DNA of 64,000 nucleotides from Synechococcus sp. C9 (GTDB lineage: Bacteria > Cyanobacteriota > Cyanobacteriia > Gloeomargaritales > Gloeomargaritaceae): contig NZ_JALAAD010000001.1 of the NCBI RefSeq assembly GCF_022984075.1, positions 682,001 to 746,000 on the forward strand. The letters run 5' to 3'. Every line of letters starts with the position of its first letter. The first letter of the stretch is position 1. Positions 11,839-40,692 of this stretch are shown piece by piece. The translations under genes were made by a program, and so were the position numbers. A model generated the notes under the pieces. It was given only the letters and a program-made list of their open reading frames with translations, did no database searches and was not told the origin of the DNA.

Positions 11839-14800
11839 TTACCAGGGGCTACCGATGAGGGTAAACGCCGCCCAGTAGTAGGGATGGTTCAACACCTGAT
11901 CCCCCCGCTGGGCAATCGCTGACGGCACCGGAATGCCGCCCCGCACCCCCCGCAGTTCGCCCCCTTTAATCGTGACTTTCCCTCGCAACATGGCAATTTG
12001 CGCCTGCCGCAATGCCTCCGCCTTGATGGGTGCCTGCCGCAGATTTTTGTAAAACTCGGTCATCAACGCCAGGGTGCCCTCATCCGACACATACCACAGG
12101 GAAGCTAGGGCACTTTTCACCCCCGCCTGCACCGCCAAACCCGCAAACCCCAATTCCGCACTCACATCCCCCACCGACGTCCGACAGGCACTCAGGGTCA
12201 ACAATTCCACCACATTCGGTTCCCGCAGAGGCAATTGCCGCAGTTGAGGTAAATTCAACCGTTGATTGTTGCCAAATTCAATGTAAGAATCGCTCAATCG
12301 TCCCGGGGCAAAATCCGCATGGGTCGCCAAGTGGATGATGGGATAACCGCCCTGCAATCGCTCCTGGGTCAAGCGTTGCACCGTAAATTCCTGATTCAAA
12401 AAGGACTGCCCCGGCCATTCCTCCGTAATCACCTTCAATTCCACCGGTACCGCTGGTAAAGGCGCTTGATTGGCAAAGGTATCGGCCCCCATCGCCAACA
12501 CCCGACTATCCCGCAGGTTGCGGTAACGGGTATCAATCAAATTCACGCTGGGAATCAGAGCCGTGCTGTATTTTTCCACCAAAAACCGCTGGCCATCATG
12601 CAGAGCCGCCACGGGCAATAACCGCAAGCCATTGTCCATCGAGAACAGCAGGGTATCAATCCCCTGGGCTTGCAATTCTTTTTCAATGGGCGCAATGAAC
12701 CACCGGTACAACTGCTGGGCATCTTTTAGGTAAGCATCGCTGGTACGCTGGCGGGGGTCTCTCAAAGCATTCAAAAATCGTTCCACCACCGGCATCAAGT
12801 TGGCTCGTTTCGCTTCAGGAATCCCCCGCACCACGGGCTGGACTTTGGCTTCCCGCTGGGCAAATGGCTCGGTGGACGCAACCAAACCTGCTCTAGCCAC
12901 CCCTGCCCGACTCCCCGGCGGAATAGCGGCAATCGTCAACTGCTGTTCATCCACCACCAAATAAACAATGGCGGTTTTTTTGCCCGTTTCCTTAGCCAAG
13001 CGACTGAGCATATTCCCAATCGCTTCGACCGAGTTTAAGTTATTAATGGGGCTGACTCCTAAAAAGCGATCAAATTCCTTGGTAAATAAGGTATCTAGTG
13101 GCAAAATTGCCGCAAAATCCCCGCTACCTAATGCTGTTCTGATTTCCCCGCCAAAAGGGACAATACTAGTAGTTCCCTCTTGGGGAGTTTGGATAGTACC
13201 GGAATCAATTACAAGGAGACCATCCCCAGAAAAACTTTCCAGGCTACCAGTATTGATATTGCCGCCTGCACCCAAAAAGATACCTTCACTGGTAATATCA
13301 CCGGTTTGGATATTGCCAAACTCATTAACAATCAGGACAACCCCGGCAAGACTCAATAGTTCAGCGGTATTGATACTACTTGCCTCCCCAAAGGTAGCAA
13401 TACCAATGCTTCCCAAGAGGGTAGCGATATTACCAGTACGGATATTGCCGGAAGTGCTAACAATGAAAACATCCCCAAGCAAGGTAATGATATCGCCGGT
13501 TTGGATATTGCCGAACTCGCTAATAATATTGACATTCCCAAGGGCAGAAGTGATGTTACCAGATTTAACATTACCGGAAGTGCTACCAGTGCTACCGACG
13601 AGGACATCCAAAGAAGCAGTAATATCACCGGTTTCAATGTTGCCGGACTCGCTGACAACGCTAACTTTCCCAAGGTCAGAAGTAAGATTACCGGTTACAA
13701 TATCACTGGCAATGCTCGCAACATTTATATCCCCAAGTTCAGAAGTGAGATTACCAGTTTGGATAGTGCCGGAAGTGCTACCAGTGCTACCGATGAGGAC
13801 ATCCAAGGAAGCAGTTATATCACCGGTTTGAATGTTACCAACCTCGCTCACAACACTGACATTCCCAAGGGCAGAAGTGATGTTACCAGATTTAACATTA
13901 CCGGAAGTGCTACCAGTGTTACCGACGAGGACATCAAAAGAAGCAGTGATATCACCGGTTTGAATATTACCAACCTCGCTCACAACACTGACATTCCCAA
14001 AAGAACTTTGTAAATCACCCGTATTGATGCTACCATCTGAAGTCAAAGCAATGCCTTCGGTTGCGACAATATCGCCTGTAGAGATACCATTTCCTGCCCT
14101 GAAAGACACCTCCCCATCGGATAAAGAAATCAAGGCATTGGCATTGATAGTGTTATCCGCAGAGAACGATAGACTGAGACCAGAACCAGAAATTTGATTG
14201 CTAATAGTAATATTATTGCCTGCATCTATTGACAAAGTAGTATCGCCAAAAGTTCCAACAATGTCACCGTTAAAAGTAATATCATTGCTCGCCCGAAGTA
14301 CCACATTATTTGTAGATAATTGAGAAACCAAGGCAGTATTACTAATAAACACGTCCCGTCCTGGTATGGCAAGGAAAAGGATCAGTGGCAATCGATTATC
14401 ATCAGGCGCACTAAACGCATCAATTAAGGTGATATTTACGGTAATATTGACTGGATCAAGCAGGAGGGTACCTGTCTTGCCCTTAGGTGCCGACGTATCC
14501 ACATTCCCCGTGAATCTTAAACTTTCTTTCCCCGATACTTCCACCAATCCCCCATCCCCAGCGTTCTGTCCTCCCTTGGCGGTGATCCTGCCCCGAAAAT
14601 CCGTCCCCTTGTCCGCCCACACAATCACCCTGCCTCCATCTCCAGAGTTAACCGCATCGGCAGTTAATTGAGAATCACGACTCACAAACGTATATTGGGC
14701 GTTGGGTTGTGTCCCTTTGCCCTGAAATTCACCCCCGATTAAAATCTCACCGCCCCCGGTAAATCCTGAAGCGTTAATTTCACTGTTTACTAAGGCGATT

Positions 14801-15720
14801 TGGGTGCCAAAAACGCCCACATTACCCCCCATTTGACTCGCACTCGAAACATCTAACGCCCCAGAAACAATTGTGGTGCCCGTACTTGTAGGAATTTGCA
14901 CATTAGAACCCGCTACCCTCACCGTGCCATTGCTATTTTGAGTAACCGTGGTTACCCCACCCCCGGTGAGCAATTCCGGCAGACGAGTAGTAGGAATATT
15001 TCCCTCCCCATCCATCATTTGGGCGGCTTGTTGGGGGTTAAATTCTAAACTTAATAATTGCCCCGCTTGCGACAACCGCACCAGATTTTCCCCCGGCACG
15101 GCGGCTAGAGTGATATTCCCCCCTGGTGCTTGAATTGTGCCCGTATTAATCACTTGACCGGCAATCAAACTCACATTTTGCCCTGGATTAACCGTTAAAT
15201 TTCCCTCATTGACAATCGCCGCCGGGTCTTTGCGGTCAAAAGCAAACCCAATCGGTTCCCCCGCCAATTTGCTGTAGTCATTCACCCCAACAGCATTAAA
15301 ACTCCCACCCGGAAACATAATCCGGTCAGCAGTGGTAGCTCTAAACGAAGCGGGCACATTCAAACTCGCCCCTTGCCCAAACACAATCCCCGCCGGGTTC
15401 ATCAGGTACAAATTGCTATTGCCGCCCGTGACTTTGATCAGCCCGTTAATCACCGACACTTCGCCGCCCGTCACCCGTGCCAGAATGTTGCGGATCGCCG
15501 GGTTAGACAGGAAATGGGCAATCTGCGCCTGACTCAAGCCAAATTTGGCAAAACTGTGAAAGAGATTCGCCCCCGCCCTCGTGCCGCCCGTGATGTCAAA
15601 CTGCTGACCATTCACCGTTACTTGCGTCCCCAGCCCGTTGGGAACAACCTGCGCCTGAGCAGGACAGGCAAAAGCCAGACACACCATCCATAACGACCAA
15701 CGCCAGCGCAACATTTGCAT
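11839..15720 (-). CDS. Secreted TPS-domain/beta-helix protein with C-terminal CHAT protease domain
   Basis: A 1293-residue exoprotein. Residues 1-23 form a signal peptide ending AQA. Residues about 24-160 are the two-partner-secretion (filamentous haemagglutinin N-terminal) domain, with the hallmark NPAGIVFGQGASLNVPASF. Residues 430-900 are repeated rungs of the type GNIQTGDITASLDVLV with a period near 20-22, indicating a beta-helix. The last 330 residues are a CHAT (caspase-like) domain with the catalytic pair His1134 (HLATHADF) and Cys1179 (LTLSACRTS). CHAT domains are cysteine peptidases. Secreted TPS-CHAT fusions occur in cyanobacteria, but their substrate and role are unknown. No TpsB pore gene is in the window. 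Confidence 0.92.
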   Translation of the reverse strand: MQMLRWRWSLWMVCLAFACPAQAQVVPNGLGTQVTVNGQQFDITGGTRAGANLFHSFAKFGLSQAQIAHFLSNPAIRNILARVTGGEVSVINGLIKVTGGNSNLYLMNPAGIVFGQGASLNVPASFRATTADRIMFPGGSFNAVGVNDYSKLAGEPIGFAFDRKDPAAIVNEGNLTVNPGQNVSLIAGQVINTGTIQAPGGNITLAAVPGENLVRLSQAGQLLSLEFNPQQAAQMMDGEGNIPTTRLPELLTGGGVTTVTQNSNGTVRVAGSNVQIPTSTGTTIVSGALDVSSASQMGGNVGVFGTQIALVNSEINASGFTGGGEILIGGEFQGKGTQPNAQYTFVSRDSQLTADAVNSGDGGRVIVWADKGTDFRGRITAKGGQNAGDGGLVEVSGKESLRFTGNVDTSAPKGKTGTLLLDPVNITVNITLIDAFSAPDDNRLPLILFLAIPGRDVFISNTALVSQLSTNNVVLRASNDITFNGDIVGTFGDTTLSIDAGNNITISNQISGSGLSLSFSADNTINANALISLSDGEVSFRAGNGISTGDIVATEGIALTSDGSINTGDLQSSFGNVSVVSEVGNIQTGDITASFDVLVGNTGSTSGNVKSGNITSALGNVSVVSEVGNIQTGDITASLDVLIGSTGSTSGTIQTGNLTSELGDINVASIASDIVTGNLTSDLGKVSVVSESGNIETGDITASLDVLVGSTGSTSGNVKSGNITSALGNVNIISEFGNIQTGDIITLLGDVFIVSTSGNIRTGNIATLLGSIGIATFGEASSINTAELLSLAGVVLIVNEFGNIQTGDITSEGIFLGAGGNINTGSLESFSGDGLLVIDSGTIQTPQEGTTSIVPFGGEIRTALGSGDFAAILPLDTLFTKEFDRFLGVSPINNLNSVEAIGNMLSRLAKETGKKTAIVYLVVDEQQLTIAAIPPGSRAGVARAGLVASTEPFAQREAKVQPVVRGIPEAKRANLMPVVERFLNALRDPRQRTSDAYLKDAQQLYRWFIAPIEKELQAQGIDTLLFSMDNGLRLLPVAALHDGQRFLVEKYSTALIPSVNLIDTRYRNLRDSRVLAMGADTFANQAPLPAVPVELKVITEEWPGQSFLNQEFTVQRLTQERLQGGYPIIHLATHADFAPGRLSDSYIEFGNNQRLNLPQLRQLPLREPNVVELLTLSACRTSVGDVSAELGFAGLAVQAGVKSALASLWYVSDEGTLALMTEFYKNLRQAPIKAEALRQAQIAMLRGKVTIKGGELRGVRGGIPVPSAIAQRGDQVLNHPYYWAAFTLIGSPW
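13500..14030 (-). repeat. In-frame tandem DNA repeats encoding beta-helix rungs
   Basis: Inside the CHAT gene, segments beginning near 13501, 13621, 13800 and 13920 repeat almost word for word at DNA level (for example ATATCACCGGTTTGAATATT and TGCCGGAAGTGCTACCAGTG, + strand). They encode GNIQTGDITASLDVLVGSTG-type rungs. The near-identity suggests recent expansion by unequal recombination or slippage, so repeat number may vary between strains. Confidence 0.75.
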
Positions 15721-34508: not shown

Positions 34509-34652
34509 GGTGGTATGCCCCCGCCTGAGGGTTTGGACATGGGATGGATGGTGCCCAGTTCTATCTTTTGACCTGCGCCAAAAATTCTTTCACCAAATTT
34601 TCTTGTTCAGATGCTGATAGCTTAGGATTAGGGTTGGAAAAAAGAGAGTTTC

Positions 34653-34747: not shown

Positions 34748-34848
34748 TATAGCAATCCTAAATGAAAATGGAACAGGGGTCGCAGGGGCACCGCCCCCGC
34801 ATTTGGTTTTGGGAAATTTTTATTTGTAAATCAAGTAGGATTGCTATA
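34748..34848 (+). repeat. Family-1 MITE-like repeat, full length (101 bp)
   Basis: The best-defined copy. Its ends TATAGCAATCCTA and TAGGATTGCTATA are a perfect 13-bp inverted repeat. The core CAGGGGCACCGCCCCCG forms a hairpin. No open reading frame of note is inside. Confidence 0.85.
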
Positions 34849-34919
34849 GAGGTGCCCTGTAATAAAATTGTAATAATAAACAATTACTTGGATAGCACTA
34901 TCTCCCACCCGATTAGGGG

Positions 34920-34968
34920 ACAAATGTCCAGGAGAACCTTGTCCACCCTGCCCCCAGGGATAACCCCT
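34920..34968 (+). repeat. Left direct repeat (copy A) of the DprA-RecQ cassette
   Basis: ACAAATGTCC (34920-34929) is followed by a 39-bp segment starting AGGAGAACCTTGTCC (34930-34968). The 39 bp are identical to 38952-38990, about 4 kb away in the same orientation. Only these two copies were found in the window. Confidence 0.75.
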
Positions 34969-35215
34969 GTAGAACCCATTTGAGATTTCAAGGAGGAGAT
35001 GCGAGACGTTGCAACATACAGTCTTTTAGGTAGTTATGGGATACAGCTAAAATTCCGCTTGCCGTAGGTTGATCACGTTGGGCTTTTAGAATAATCAAGG
35101 TTTTTTTGTATCCCTTAATTTATAAATAGACTGTATCCAAGCATCTTTGTTATTGATTAATCCTTCTTCTTTTGCAAATTGGTTTGCCAAATGTTGCTAC
35201 TGTACCCCATAATAG

Positions 35216-35347
35216 AAGAAAAGACTGTACCAGGGGGCGAGTGGCAATGTGGATTTTGACGAATTTGGGGACGTGGTGGGCAGTTATGACGTGTGGCAGG
35301 TGACACCGGAGGGCAAAATTAAAGTGATTGACCGGGTGACACCTTAA
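35216..35347 (+). pseudogene. 3' remnant of a branched-chain amino acid ABC substrate-binding protein gene
   Basis: The frame reads YQGASGNVDFDEFGDVVGSY then DVWQVTPEGKIKVIDRVTP and a TAA stop. This matches the extreme C-terminus of periplasmic Leu/Ile/Val-type (NatB/LivK) binding proteins, where GASG-x-VDFD-x-x-GDV and W-x-V-x-x-GKI are conserved. An in-frame TAG lies just upstream and no start or N-terminal part exists nearby, so only about 40 codons survive. It sits inside the direct-repeat-bounded cassette. Confidence 0.7.
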
Positions 35348-35467
35348 AACATCTCCGAAAATACAGGTTATTTGGCTCAAATGCCCATACTCATTCGAGA
35401 ACCAGAAACCGGGGGCTAGGTTCCTGCGACCCATTTTTGGAAGTGCCCATTAGCCAGTGTCAAAGCC

Positions 35468-36757
35468 CTAATTAAGGCTGATTAGATGCAACTGTTTATT
35501 CTCCCGATTTAATACATACTTTGTACTTTTCTTTATCACCAGCTTTTCCTGTATGGCTTTCTTTAGCCAAATTCGCACCTGACCCACCCCAACATCTAAC
35601 AGTTCAGCAAGTTCTTTATCTCCTTGCGGTTCACGTAAATGATGTAGAAGTAAAGGTAACACAGCTTCATAAGCATTTTTAGGCAACTTTGATGTCAGTT
35701 CCTTTTCTTGAGGGTTAGCATTATTTGACTGAATTTCTAATTGATTTTTTTTGTTTATATCTAATTGTTTTGAAGTGCTTGTTTGAGTTCCTGTCGTGTG
35801 GATTTGTTTCTGTTCTTCTAGCAAATCTAGTAGGCTACGATTCCATGGTTGGAACGGGAAAGGTATCGCTCCTAATTTAACGAGCTGATAATTTCCCTGG
35901 GGCACATTTCCTTCTAATCGAACCCAAACAAAAATTCTGTTTTCTCTCTTTAATTCTTCCTTGGCTCCAGCCCAGGTTCCACCTTTTTCGTAAGAGGAAT
36001 TTACAACCAGAGCATGATCAGCTAGGGCATACACATATTTATTCCGGTTCATTGCATTTCCCACATTAAATCCCACAGAGGGATCATAGGGTGAGATTAA
36101 GACAACTCGACCTTCACGAAGTCCCTGACGATACTTCATTGATACCGCCGCTTTGCTCAAACTATCTGCTAAAACTCCAACCGATGTACCTCCAACAGAA
36201 ATAGCCGCTAGCATAGCAGTCTCGTCAACGCCACGTGCGCCGCCCGATACGATTTGTATTCCTTGTTCAGCACACTTTTCAGCGATGCGTTGGGTATATC
36301 CAAGCCCCTCATCATCGATGTCGCGAGAACCAACTACGGCTAACCCCCCTGCCGATAGTAAATCTCGATTTCCTACACCATATAGAATTGGGGGAGCTAA
36401 GTGCTTTAATTTCTGCTTCAACCTTTGTGGATAAGTTTCATCACTACGACTTAGTATCCACAAACCCTTACTTGTCCAGTTTTCCACAGCAACTGCTAGC
36501 ATAGCTCCTCGCTCCAAAAGCCGAACTATTCTTTGGGGGTTGAGGTCTCCATTGATCTGATGGAAAACCCAGTTTTTCCCTTCTGTCGTCAGTAAATCGG
36601 CAGGGCGCAGATTATCTTGGTGTAATTTTCGTGCTAAAGCATTGTACTCACTAAGACTCAGGGGCATCGGTTCAACTTGACGGGATTCACCAAATCCTGC
36701 ACATAGAAGCAGAATTGCTTGGGTGTCAGGTTGTAAGATATGCGTAAGTACTGCCAT
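35468..36757 (-). CDS. DprA/SMF-like protein paired with RecQ-PRTase helicase
   Basis: A 429-residue protein. The Rossmann core has LAVVGSRDIDDEGLGYTQ (about 139-156) and IVSGGARGVDETAMLAAI (about 169-186), matching the DprA nucleotide/ssDNA-binding fold. Further blocks are NAMNRNKYVYALADHALVV and EKGGTWAGAKEELKR, versions of the DprA GRNR and SGTxxTA motifs. A C-terminal winged helix (about 360-415) follows a low-complexity Asn/Lys linker. Its ATG directly follows the helicase stop (TAGATG), so the pair is an operon. It is AT-rich and differs from housekeeping DprA. A conflict role like ShosA is inferred from the pairing. Confidence 0.82.
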   Translation of the reverse strand: MAVLTHILQPDTQAILLLCAGFGESRQVEPMPLSLSEYNALARKLHQDNLRPADLLTTEGKNWVFHQINGDLNPQRIVRLLERGAMLAVAVENWTSKGLWILSRSDETYPQRLKQKLKHLAPPILYGVGNRDLLSAGGLAVVGSRDIDDEGLGYTQRIAEKCAEQGIQIVSGGARGVDETAMLAAISVGGTSVGVLADSLSKAAVSMKYRQGLREGRVVLISPYDPSVGFNVGNAMNRNKYVYALADHALVVNSSYEKGGTWAGAKEELKRENRIFVWVRLEGNVPQGNYQLVKLGAIPFPFQPWNRSLLDLLEEQKQIHTTGTQTSTSKQLDINKKNQLEIQSNNANPQEKELTSKLPKNAYEAVLPLLLHHLREPQGDKELAELLDVGVGQVRIWLKKAIQEKLVIKKSTKYVLNRENKQLHLISLN

Positions 36758-38851
36758 CTATTCTCCCTGACTCAGCGAATTGAGGGCTAAAGCTAATGGA
36801 AATACTTTACCACTGCCTGCCTGACGCAACAGAGCGGTGATCACTGTAAATGTCCAGCGAGAATCTACCATATCGTCAATCAAGAAGACAGAGCCTGCCA
36901 TTCCTCGCCAAGGACTAACCGTAAATGCGCCATCTAGGTTCTTAGCTTGTTGAGTGCTATTCTTCATCTCTTTTTGTGGACGGTTTTGTTTGATTTTCTT
37001 AACACAGGGAACAAAAGGAATGTTTAATTTACGAGCTAAACGGTCGGCAAAGCTGGGCACTAGTTCAGGACGGGTGAGGGAAGGGACACAAGTTACCCAT
37101 GTGGGAAAGGGATTGGGTTGCCAACGCTGAATTAAATCGTACACGGCATCCACCAGTTCGTCACTAAAGTAATTATCTTGGTACTTGCCTTGTTTGACCA
37201 GATTTCCCCAACCTGCATCACCCCAAATTGATAATGCGCGACCAGTCTCAGCTCGTAAATTTTGAGGGATATTCCCTCTCCATGCGTAAGTTAAAAGTCC
37301 ACCAGTAATCCACTGTTTGCGTGGCTCAATAATCTGGTCTGTTCTGCGGAGAAAAAGGACTGCCTCTTGGGCTTTGGCTGAAGAGTAGGTTTCTGGAATG
37401 AGAGCTTTTCCCAAACAAACAGCACAGCGTCCACATTCTTTTGTAGTGTTGTCGTCCAACTCTTGGGCTAAAAACATCATCAGACAGCTATTTGTATTGA
37501 GATAATCCAACATACGAGCTTGTTCATGCTTTCTGATAGCAGTAAGCTGAGCAATTTTAGCGTGATTTACTTGGTAGTTAATTGGTGTGGAATACCAGCG
37601 ACTCCCAATTTTTGCAACTGGAGAGGGTTCTTCGACGGATAATAATTTTAGGACTTTTTCAATTTGTCCCCTAGAAAGATTTAATTTTTCCTCTATTCCA
37701 GCAATGGATAAACCGTCTTCTTGATTGAGAACAGCCAGGATTTCTAGGACATGGCGCTCTGGGGGAAAAGCGGATTCAATAAAATAATTGGTGATTTCTT
37801 CATCTTCATCGCCACTTAGTAAGATGCCATAAGCCTGCGAAACTGCTCTGCCTGCCCGTCCTACTTGTTGGTAGTAATGAACCACTGAGCCTGGACGCTG
37901 ATAGTGAATTACAAATCCAAGGTCAGGTTTATCAAAACCCATTCCTAGGGCAGAGGTTGCCACTAAAGCCTTGATTTCATTATTTAGTAGCCTTTCCTCC
38001 AAAACTATACGCTGTTCAGGTTCAAGTTGCCCAGAATAGGCTTCGGCATCAATTTTTTGTGTTCTTAACCACTCTGCAACCTGTTCTGCATCTCTAATTG
38101 TCAGAGTATAAATGATTCCACTGCCCGGCAAATTGGGAAGGTGCTCGGCTAACCATGCCAATCTCTCTGCCTGACTGGGTAAATATATGTTTTGCAGGGA
38201 TAAGCTCTGCCTCGTTAGCGTTCCCCTAACTACACGCAGTTTTGTACCAAGCTGAGCACATATATCATTTATGACTCGATCGTTTGCTGTTGCTGTTGTT
38301 GCCAGCACGGAAATCGTTGGAGGTAAGGCTTGCAGGATGCGTACAATTCGCCGGTAGTCGGGACGAAAATCATGCCCCCAATCAGAAATGCAATGAGCCT
38401 CGTCAACTACAAAAAATCCAATTCTCGCGGATAGAGGTAATAAAATCTGCTCGCGAAACTCGTCGTTTGCCAGACGCTCTGGTGAAATCAGAAGTATATC
38501 AATCTGATCAGATAGCAGTTGTTTTTGGATAATTTCCCATTCTGATTGATTGCTGGAGTTGATAGTTCCCGCTCGCAGTCCGATTCGTTCAGCGGCAGAA
38601 ATTTGATTGCGCATTAAAGCGAGGAGGGGAGATATGATTAGGGTTGCTCCCATACCTCGATCGCGAAGAAGGCGGGTAGTTAAAAAATATACGAGACTCT
38701 TTCCCCATCCGGTTCTTTGTACGACTAATAAACGAGTGCTTGGATTTAATAAATGCTCGATCGCTTCCCATTGCCCGTCCCGAAAGTTTGCTACTGGATT
38801 ATCCAGTGCAGTACGGAGTAGTTGCAGAGCAGTAGCTTGCAGGTCAGGCAT
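36758..38851 (-). CDS. RecQ-like DNA helicase with C-terminal phosphoribosyltransferase-like domain
   Basis: A 697-residue fusion. The helicase core has a variant Walker A QRTGWGKSLVYF (45-56), DEAHCISDWGHDFRPDY (150-166), motif V TSALGMGFDKPD and motif VI QQVGRAGRA. The RecQ zinc knuckle uses Cys456, 473, 476 and 479. A winged-helix-like part lies at about 370-425. From about 585 the chain turns into a phosphoribosyltransferase-like domain: CVPSLTRPELVPSFADRLA and the PRPP-loop-like FLIDDMVDSRWTF (656-668). No HRDC domain is seen. It is first in a two-gene operon with the DprA-like protein. It could act on foreign DNA, as suggested by the ShosTA-like pairing. Confidence 0.88.
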   Translation of the reverse strand: MPDLQATALQLLRTALDNPVANFRDGQWEAIEHLLNPSTRLLVVQRTGWGKSLVYFLTTRLLRDRGMGATLIISPLLALMRNQISAAERIGLRAGTINSSNQSEWEIIQKQLLSDQIDILLISPERLANDEFREQILLPLSARIGFFVVDEAHCISDWGHDFRPDYRRIVRILQALPPTISVLATTATANDRVINDICAQLGTKLRVVRGTLTRQSLSLQNIYLPSQAERLAWLAEHLPNLPGSGIIYTLTIRDAEQVAEWLRTQKIDAEAYSGQLEPEQRIVLEERLLNNEIKALVATSALGMGFDKPDLGFVIHYQRPGSVVHYYQQVGRAGRAVSQAYGILLSGDEDEEITNYFIESAFPPERHVLEILAVLNQEDGLSIAGIEEKLNLSRGQIEKVLKLLSVEEPSPVAKIGSRWYSTPINYQVNHAKIAQLTAIRKHEQARMLDYLNTNSCLMMFLAQELDDNTTKECGRCAVCLGKALIPETYSSAKAQEAVLFLRRTDQIIEPRKQWITGGLLTYAWRGNIPQNLRAETGRALSIWGDAGWGNLVKQGKYQDNYFSDELVDAVYDLIQRWQPNPFPTWVTCVPSLTRPELVPSFADRLARKLNIPFVPCVKKIKQNRPQKEMKNSTQQAKNLDGAFTVSPWRGMAGSVFLIDDMVDSRWTFTVITALLRQAGSGKVFPLALALNSLSQGE

Positions 38852-38884
38852 GGTTTTGTTAGTTCTTAGAGCGTATTTTTCTGA

Positions 38885-38928: not shown

Positions 38929-38990
38929 ACAAATGTCCGGGAGAACCAAACAGGAGAACCTTGTCCACCCTGCCCCCAGGGATAACCCCT
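38929..38990 (+). repeat. Right direct repeat (copy B) of the DprA-RecQ cassette
   Basis: ACAAATGTCC (38929-38938), then a 13-bp insert-like GGGAGAACCAAAC that partly duplicates AGGAGAACC, then the 39-bp segment identical to copy A (38952-38990). The last base begins a TATAAT box (38990-38995) 24 bp before the aldolase start, so this copy appears to carry the aldolase promoter. Copy A has TGTAGA there instead. Confidence 0.75.
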
Positions 38991-39018
38991 ATAATCAAAC
39001 CAGATTCCTGTGGGGCAA

Positions 39019-39957
39019 ATGCTCATGCAACCACGCATCAAAGAAATTCTCAGTTGGTATGGCAGTGACAACCCTGGCACCCTGACGAATCTGGCTCGTT
39101 TACTCAATCACGGGCGGCTCGCAGGCACGGGCAAACTGGTGATCCTGCCGGTGGATCAGGGGTTTGAGCATGGCCCGGCGCGCAGTTTTGCCAGCAATCC
39201 CCCCGCCTACGACCCCCATTACCACTTTGAATTGGCGATTGCCTCCGGGTGTAATGCCTATGCCGCTCCCCTGGGTTTTTTAGAGGCGGGTGCCAGGGAC
39301 TTTGCCGGGGAAATCCCCCTAATTCTCAAGGTGAATGACCACGATGTGCTGTTGGATGAAGCCGACCCCACCCAAGCGTTGACCGGGAGCGTCCAGGATG
39401 CCCTGCGGTTGGGCTGTGTGGGCATTGGGTTTACGATTTATCCCGGCTCTGCCCGCCGCTTGGAAATGTACCAACAAATCCGTGCCTACGCCGAAGAGGC
39501 CAAGCGCAACGGTTTGGTCGTGGTCATCTGGTCCTATGCCCGGGGGTCGGGGCTGAGTCGGACGGGGGAAACGGCGATTGATGTGGTTGGCTATGCGGCG
39601 CAGATTGCCGCCCAATTGGGAGCACACATTATCAAAGTCAAGTTGCCAAGTGAACATATCGAACAGGCGGCGGCACGGCAGGTCTATGAAAAAATGCAAA
39701 TTCCGATTGCCACCCTCAGCGACCGAGTACGCCATGTGGTGCAATGTACCTTTAACGGGCGTAGAATTGTGATCTTTTCCGGGGGAGCCACTGCCACCGA
39801 TGCCGTGGTACTCGATGAAATCCGTGCCATTCAAGCCGGGGGCGGGTTTGGTTCAATTATTGGGCGCAATTCATTCCAGCGTCCCCGGGCCGAGGCACTC
39901 AAACTTTTAGAGCAAATTATGGAAATTTACCAAGGCAAAATTCATCCATCTAAATAA
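39019..39957 (+). CDS. Class I fructose-bisphosphate aldolase (DhnA/FbaB type)
   Basis: A 312-residue archaeal-type class I aldolase, cleaving or forming fructose-1,6-bisphosphate through a Schiff base in glycolysis and the Calvin cycle. Family blocks: KLVILPVDQGFEHGPARSF, LILKVNDHDVL, GIGFTIYPGSARRLEMYQQI, the Schiff-base lysine region AHIIKVKLPS, and VIFSGGATATDAV with GFGSIIGRNSFQRP. ATG 39019 or 39025 is preferred over the GTG at 39010. A TATAAT box lies 24 bp upstream in the cassette's right direct repeat. Confidence 0.9.
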   Translation: MLMQPRIKEILSWYGSDNPGTLTNLARLLNHGRLAGTGKLVILPVDQGFEHGPARSFASNPPAYDPHYHFELAIASGCNAYAAPLGFLEAGARDFAGEIPLILKVNDHDVLLDEADPTQALTGSVQDALRLGCVGIGFTIYPGSARRLEMYQQIRAYAEEAKRNGLVVVIWSYARGSGLSRTGETAIDVVGYAAQIAAQLGAHIIKVKLPSEHIEQAAARQVYEKMQIPIATLSDRVRHVVQCTFNGRRIVIFSGGATATDAVVLDEIRAIQAGGGFGSIIGRNSFQRPRAEALKLLEQIMEIYQGKIHPSK

Positions 39958-40325: not shown

Positions 40326-40692
40326 AGTTTCATGCCAGATTGAGAAGGGTGGATAACGGTTTGATATGTGAAGTAATCGTAAACCCATAGCAATAGTGTA
40401 GCAAGCTCACCTGGATGGTGGGTAAAAATTTTATACTTAGAAAGATAAAAGATACCTATAGCAATCCCACTTGATTTGCAAATAAAAAGTTTCCAGAACC
40501 AAGGACGGGGGCGGTGCCCCTGCGACCCCTGTTCTATTTGATTTAGGATTGCCATATATGATCTAATTTGGATAAAAATAATTGACAATTTGCTAATTAG
40601 AAGGATGCAGTATCTCTAGGTGTATAATTTCAGTTGAGATAGCATTTCCGGTTCCGAGTCCATAGGTCTGTCTGTCGTTTAAGGTTACCTGC
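40326..40692. other. Intergenic region (367 bp) with one family-1 repeat
   Basis: Divergent spacer between the hypothetical gene and the DUF3531 gene. It contains the reverse-oriented family-1 repeat at 40457-40558. Nothing else was recognised. Confidence 0.5.
40457..40558 (-). repeat. Family-1 MITE-like repeat, reverse orientation
   Basis: Ends are TATAGCAATCC on the left and GGATTGCCATATA on the right. The core appears reversed as AGAACCAAGGACGGGGGCGG then TGCCCCTGCGACCCC. Its length of 102 bp matches the other full copies. Confidence 0.85.

What the first reader, a model, noticed from the sequence alone, without database searches (positions are those of the whole stretch)
35468..38851. 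DprA-like protein plus RecQ-phosphoribosyltransferase fusion: candidate defence system
Seen: a two-gene minus-strand operon (TAGATG junction) of a RecQ-like helicase carrying a C-terminal phosphoribosyltransferase-like domain (FLIDDMVDSRWTF), followed by a DprA/SMF-like protein with an added winged helix. Known: in ShosTA, an anti-phage toxin-antitoxin-like system of P4-type satellites, a phosphoribosyltransferase-domain protein (ShosT) pairs with a DprA-domain protein (ShosA). Inference: this operon is a helicase-armed relative in which RecQ senses or unwinds foreign DNA, DprA binds single strands and the PRTase domain is the effector. The AT-rich composition and mobile surroundings fit a defence cassette.
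Basis: partly seen in the sequence, partly recalled or inferred. Interest (0 to 1): 0.82.

Follow-up and report, generated by a model that had tools for sequence, protein, structure and literature searches.

The report
Cyanobacterial PsyrTA toxin-antitoxin defence pair
The two genes are a well-formed copy of an already named toxin-antitoxin pair linked to virus defence (PsyrTA, also called RqlHI), acquired recently by this cyanobacterium, so the find is real but essentially ordinary.

Summary
Window 36758-38851(-) encodes a 697-aa RecQ-type helicase with a C-terminal phosphoribosyltransferase (PRTase) domain. Its stop codon abuts the ATG of a 429-aa DprA-like protein with a C-terminal winged helix (35468-36757, -).

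The pair is not a new relative of ShosTA. It matches the PADLOC models PsyrT (E 1.7e-303) and PsyrA (E 1.8e-137) end to end. This is the known PsyrTA/RqlHI system, in which the PRTase domain of the helicase is genotoxic and the DprA-like partner binds and restrains it (Russell & Mulvey 2015).

All motifs needed for activity are intact, and AlphaFold plus Foldseek confirm the RecQ core and the DprA/ShosA-like fold. Only the two genes are shared among unrelated cyanobacteria. Full-length PsyrT is in 8 of 291 genomes of the class, absent from all six congeners searched, and nearest (83%) in another family. The cassette is AT-rich and flanked by a 43-nt direct repeat that occurs nowhere else in the genome. 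This is a horizontally acquired accessory cassette.

Its neighbours here are housekeeping genes, not a defence island. Anti-phage activity of this copy, its trigger and the PRTase substrate remain untested. Verdict: new member of a known kind; low interest.

The parts
36758..38851 (-). psyrT (rqlH-like): 697-aa RecQ-type helicase with C-terminal PRTase domain, the toxin
   Evidence: PADLOC PsyrT PDLC03928 E 1.7e-303, residues 5-693 of 697 on model positions 5-686 of 689; AlphaFold pLDDT 88.4
38264..38779 (-). DEAD helicase domain (residues 25-196), Walker A TGWGKS 47-52, DEAH box D150-H153
   Evidence: Pfam DEAD E 1.5e-24; Walker A and D150, E151, H153 invariant in 27 homologues
37844..38137 (-). 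Helicase_C domain (residues 239-336), motif VI QQVGRAGR 328-335
   Evidence: Pfam Helicase_C E 1.8e-17; motif VI invariant
37412..37534 (-). RecQ zinc-binding region (residues 440-480; C456, C473, C476, C479)
   Evidence: Pfam RecQ_Zn_bind E 7e-4; the four cysteines are at least 90% conserved
36848..36886 (-). PRPP-binding loop FLIDDMVDSRWTF, residues 656-668
   Evidence: D659, D660, S664, W666, T667 invariant and D663 nearly so in 27 homologues; same position as E. coli RqlH DIVD663, whose change abolishes toxicity
36782..37264 (-). PRTase domain, approximately residues 530-690
   Evidence: Pribosyltran matched by 19 of 27 homologues; C-terminal profile finds PRTases; strand/helix order in the model fits a PRTase
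35468..36757 (-). psyrA (rqlI-like): 429-aa DprA-like protein, the antitoxin
   Evidence: PADLOC PsyrA PDLC03927 E 1.8e-137, residues 8-414 on model 3-394 of 398
35867..36475 (-). DprA/SMF Rossmann domain (residues 95-297), GSRD 143-146 and SGGARGVD 171-178
   Evidence: PF02481 E 3.1e-38; Foldseek DprA (3maj, 3uqz) and ShosA (8zva)
35510..35674 (-). C-terminal winged helix (residues 362-416)
   Evidence: H-H-H-E-E pattern, pLDDT 91-96; PH0730-like_N match below cut-off
36755..36760 (-). TAG|ATG junction, genes directly adjoining
   Evidence: Sequence; same junction in G015
34929..34971 (+). left copy of a 43-nt direct repeat flanking the cassette
   Evidence: 98% identical to the right copy; its 37-nt core occurs only twice in the genome with up to 3 mismatches
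38951..38993 (+). right copy of the 43-nt direct repeat
   Evidence: homology of congener G004 to the neighbouring aldolase gene starts at 38989, at the repeat's end

Best explanation
This is a PsyrTA (RqlHI) toxin-antitoxin pair, recently acquired by horizontal transfer. PsyrT is a RecQ-family helicase that carries a PRPP-binding PRTase domain at its end. When PsyrT is loaded on DNA the PRTase makes a genotoxic lesion or product that triggers SOS and stops growth. PsyrA, a DprA-like protein, binds PsyrT and holds the PRTase in check. When an invader upsets PsyrA, for instance by offering it single-stranded or recombining DNA, PsyrT is released and the cell halts before the phage multiplies (abortive infection). 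Shown here: family membership, intact motifs, folds, pairing and mobility. Shown by others in E. coli: toxicity through the PRTase, restraint by RqlI with physical interaction, SOS induction. Inferred: the trigger, the PRTase chemistry, and that this copy protects against phage.
For: Full-length matches to the PsyrT and PsyrA models. Walker A, DEAH, motif VI, zinc cysteines and PRPP loop conserved across 27 homologues from cyanobacteria to Proteobacteria, Nitrospirae and Actinobacteria. The partner gene lies directly downstream in 33 of 37 loci. Folds: RecQ core (Foldseek), DprA and ShosA. In E. coli RqlH, mutation of the PRPP loop (DIVD663EVME, D663A) or deletion of the PRTase removes toxicity, and RqlI counteracts it and physically interacts with it (PMC4670107). 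PsyrTA is listed as an abortive-infection system (PMC10855318). Patchy and mobile: 8 of 291 genomes; absent in six congeners; T and A 83% identical to G015 of another family, against 80% for GuaA and 59% for porphobilinogen synthase; only the two genes are shared between distant loci.
Against: Neighbours are housekeeping genes, and 126 neighbours of eleven other cyanobacterial copies held few PADLOC matches, mostly explainable as housekeeping or transposon genes. An E. coli PsyrTA tested in its native host gave no detectable phage protection and a growth defect on overexpression (PMC12409345). One homologous locus (L055) has PsyrT without a recognisable PsyrA. Some related Nostoc and Scytonema genomes keep the pair with the same neighbours, so it can be stably kept. 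Toxicity, neutralisation and defence were not tested for this copy.
Confidence: 0.85

Rival explanations
1. A DNA-repair or DNA-uptake module rather than a defence system: the RecQ-PRTase and the DprA-like protein handle incoming or damaged single strands, like ComFA/ComFC with DprA in natural transformation, and toxicity is a by-product of imbalance.
For: DprA and the ComFC PRTase both handle single-stranded DNA in transformation, and ComFC binds PRPP (PMC9005727). Iyer et al. 2017 note the DNA-uptake or SOS-like alternative. Kept in the same neighbourhood in some Nostoc relatives.
Against: The genome has its own canonical DprA (C1:2179639, E 4e-76) and a separate RecQ-like helicase (C1:425734). 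The pair is rare and horizontally moved, unlike competence genes. RqlH is toxic without RqlI in E. coli.
Confidence: 0.12
2. A selfish addiction module kept by toxin-antitoxin logic, with no regular role in defence.
For: Two-gene toxin-antitoxin layout; psyrTA was first validated by shotgun cloning as a toxin-antitoxin pair; no protection seen for one E. coli copy; here outside a defence island.
Against: Chromosomal in this genome and mostly on large contigs elsewhere; other reports list it as an abortive-infection system. Addiction and defence are not exclusive.
Confidence: 0.2
3. A helicase-armed ShosTA variant, a new system.
For: PsyrA also matches ShosA models (E 3.6e-30) and ShosA structures.
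Against: The match to PsyrA (1.8e-137) and to PsyrT (1.7e-303) is far stronger and full length; the helicase-PRTase plus DprA layout is what defines PsyrTA/RqlHI.
Confidence: 0.02

Closest known systems
PsyrTA (PADLOC/DefenseFinder; validated as a toxin-antitoxin pair by Sberro et al. 2013, as cited in PMC8790059)
   Same: Both proteins match the models full length; same gene order and domain layout
   Different: Cyanobacterial host; PsyrT 48-70% identical to most other members; not tested experimentally
RqlHI of extraintestinal pathogenic E. coli (Russell & Mulvey 2015)
   Same: RecQ-like helicase with toxic C-terminal PRTase, DprA-like inhibitor downstream; PRPP-loop residues at the same numbers (D660-D663)
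   Different: Host and sequence; RqlHI was described through SOS induction, low-oxygen growth and survival in the host rather than phage
ShosTA
   Same: DprA-like antitoxin (ShosA fold) with a PRTase toxin
   Different: Its toxin partner is a PRTase protein without a RecQ helicase (own knowledge); the helicase portion is what sets PsyrT apart
DpdF of the Dpd system
   Same: SF2 RecQ-branch helicase; several DpdF models match the helicase and C-terminal parts (PMC10925250)
   Different: Different partners; weaker match than to PsyrT
ComFA/ComFC with DprA (natural transformation)
   Same: Helicase, PRTase and DprA functions in one pathway
   Different: Separate proteins, no toxin-antitoxin behaviour

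Membership tests
PsyrTA / RqlHI | RecQ-family helicase core with Walker A, DEAH and motif VI intact | tested here: met
PsyrTA / RqlHI | PRTase domain fused C-terminally with intact PRPP loop | tested here: met
PsyrTA / RqlHI | Adjacent co-oriented DprA-like partner with C-terminal helix-turn-helix / winged helix | tested here: met
PsyrTA / RqlHI | Full-length match to PADLOC PsyrT and PsyrA models | tested here: met
PsyrTA / RqlHI | Helicase-PRTase toxic alone, neutralised by partner through direct contact | not testable with these tools
   Known for E. coli RqlHI; needs bench work for this copy
PsyrTA / RqlHI | Protection against phage | not testable with these tools
   Reported for the family, not detected for one E. 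coli copy
PsyrTA / RqlHI | Accessory, patchy distribution typical of defence/TA systems | tested here: met
   8 of 291 genomes of the class; absent from six congeners
PsyrTA / RqlHI | Location in a defence island (usual for defence systems, not a defining feature) | tested here: not met
ShosTA | DprA-like antitoxin of the ShosA type | tested here: inconclusive
   Matches ShosA at E 3.6e-30 but PsyrA at 1.8e-137
ShosTA | PRTase toxin without helicase | tested here: not met
   The PRTase here is fused to a RecQ helicase

The most novel reading that the evidence does not exclude
The PRTase domain acts directly on DNA: the helicase feeds it single strands and it transfers phosphoribose from PRPP onto bases or ends, a form of DNA modification not yet demonstrated. 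The evidence does not exclude this (Russell & Mulvey speculated on it), but it would be a property of the whole PsyrTA family, not of this locus.
Probability: 0.12. Interest if true: 0.6.

Novelty: new member of a known kind. Interest (0 to 1): 0.18.

Why it matters
It adds a clean, recently transferred cyanobacterial example of PsyrTA with a close relative (83%) in another family, useful for comparison. The open questions about the family, namely what the PRTase does and what releases it, are not answered by this locus.

Tried and rejected
(1) New helicase-armed ShosTA variant: rejected, since PADLOC assigns PsyrT and PsyrA full length. (2) Core housekeeping pair: rejected by distribution and by the separate canonical DprA and RecQ-like helicase. 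(3) Defence island: no PADLOC hit among ten nearby window proteins. In 126 neighbours of eleven other cyanobacterial copies, hits were DndA/SspA (probably a cysteine desulfurase), Cas12f/Cas12u3 (probably TnpB), a glycogen-branching enzyme, an NYN nuclease and a few mads genes; no matched control set was run. (4) Phage carriage: no phage record at E 1e-60; 13 plasmid records and 5 viral contigs held distant relatives. (5) PDB search with the C-terminal 208 residues alone gave only chance matches; the PRTase was confirmed by other routes. A whole-chain Foldseek search was swamped by helicases, so no separate structural hit list exists for the PRTase domain. (6) Promoters and terminators: nothing above shuffled expectation. 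(7) Empty site: the nearest congener G002 is syntenic up to 34555 and then continues with a different gene, so no simple empty site was found.

Full report
Observation. The two minus-strand ORFs are at the coordinates given, intact, and joined as TAG|ATG. The first protein (697 aa) has DEAD, Helicase_C and RecQ zinc-binding matches and a weak Pribosyltran match at its end. The second (429 aa) is DprA-like, with a C-terminal winged helix in the predicted structure. The weak PRTase call is real: 19 of 27 homologues match the family, best 6.2e-10; a profile of their C-termini picks out true PRTases ahead of all other ORFs from the same DNA; and the model shows the expected strand-helix order with the loop FLIDDMVDSRWTF at residues 656-668.

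Identity. PADLOC assigns the proteins to PsyrT (E 1.7e-303) and PsyrA (E 1.8e-137), both essentially full length; ShosA is a much weaker second match (E 3.6e-30). PsyrTA is the same arrangement as RqlHI of pathogenic E. coli. There, RqlH without RqlI induces SOS and filamentation and slows growth; removal of the PRTase domain, or mutation of DIVD663 or D663 in its PRPP loop, removes this; and RqlI counters it and physically interacts with RqlH (PMC4670107). Rousset et al. list shosTA, syrTA and rqlHI together as systems with DprA-type antitoxins (PMC9122126). PsyrTA is described as a toxin-antitoxin system giving phage protection by abortive infection (PMC10855318), although one E. coli copy gave no detectable protection (PMC12409345).

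Integrity. In 27 PsyrT sequences, the homologues being 49-70% identical to the window protein, the Walker A motif, the DEAH box, motif VI, the zinc cysteines and the PRPP loop are conserved and present here. In 26 PsyrA sequences the DprA motifs GSR and SGGARGVD are kept. AlphaFold models are confident (pLDDT 88.4 and 86.5). Foldseek matches the first to RecQ cores and the second to DprA and to ShosA of E. coli.

Distribution and transfer. The partner gene lies directly downstream in 33 of 37 loci from cyanobacteria to Proteobacteria and other phyla. Of the four exceptions, L036 ends 48 bases after the helicase gene, L034 has under 1 kb left, L061 is incomplete, and only L055 has ample sequence without a recognisable partner. 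Full-length PsyrT occurs in 8 of 291 genomes of the class, 7 of 130 genera, and in none of six congeners or the one other family member searched. The nearest copies, G015 and G269, belong to other families, yet PsyrT is 83% and 81% identical. For comparison, between this genome and G015 the highly conserved GuaA is 80% and porphobilinogen synthase 59% identical; other genomes with equally similar GuaA (G028 80%, G177 81%) have PsyrT at only 59% and 69%. DNA similarity to G015 covers 35450-38882, little more than the two genes, and distant loci share no other gene. Close relatives within Nostoc-like and Scytonema-like groups do share neighbours, so the pair can settle. Plasmid records also hold relatives, one of them in Nostoc.

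Setting. GC over the pair is 41-46% against 57-61% to the left. A 43-nt direct repeat (34929-34971 and 38951-38993) brackets the cassette, and its core occurs nowhere else in the genome. Synteny with the nearest congener ends at 34555. Homology of another congener to the adjacent aldolase gene starts at 38989, at the end of the right repeat. These facts fit an insertion between the repeats, but no clean empty site was found and no transposase or integrase was recognised nearby. Neighbours are murF, a DUF2949 gene, an aldolase and a DUF3531 gene; none of ten nearby proteins matches a defence model.

Mechanism. Most likely PsyrT is a DNA-loaded toxin whose PRTase harms the cell's DNA or nucleotide supply, PsyrA is its bound inhibitor, and phage infection releases the toxin. 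The first two steps rest on RqlHI experiments and conserved residues; the release step and the defence role of this copy are inference. What the PRTase acts on is not established in the sources read here.

Verdict. A real, intact and recently acquired PsyrTA system; a new member of a known kind, of low interest in itself.

Noticed in passing
34766-34849 and 40456-40539: An 84-nt inverted pair (89% complementary) that belongs to a dispersed repeat family: a 28-nt core has 34 copies in this genome and 69 in congener G002, none in G004, G007 or G015. It looks like a lineage-specific miniature mobile or REP-like element.
   Followed up: partly
39010-39957: A DeoC/LacD-type aldolase gene beside the cassette is itself patchy: among six congeners only G004 has it (90% identical, elsewhere in the genome, with one stop in the frame).
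   Followed up: partly
35016-35229: Three short copies of an inverted sequence (ATACAGTCTTTT...GGGATACAG) near the antitoxin's 3' end; similar stretches lie near a transposase gene in congener G002, possibly remnants of an insertion sequence.
   Followed up: no
L066:15563-18790: The G015 copy of the pair lies about 2.3 kb from a 1075-aa protein that looks, by eye, like a HEAT-repeat/NTPase/sulfatase-modifying-factor fusion, and near a ParA/ParB-like pair.
   Followed up: no
L055: A Solirubrobacteraceae PsyrT homologue (48%) with no recognisable PsyrA next to it, and a diverged PRPP loop (LLDDLRLSGWT); fits reports of RqlH without RqlI.
   Followed up: no
11839-15720: A 1293-aa filamentous-haemagglutinin-type protein with many near-identical internal repeats and a CHAT-like end, judged by eye from the translation.
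   Followed up: no
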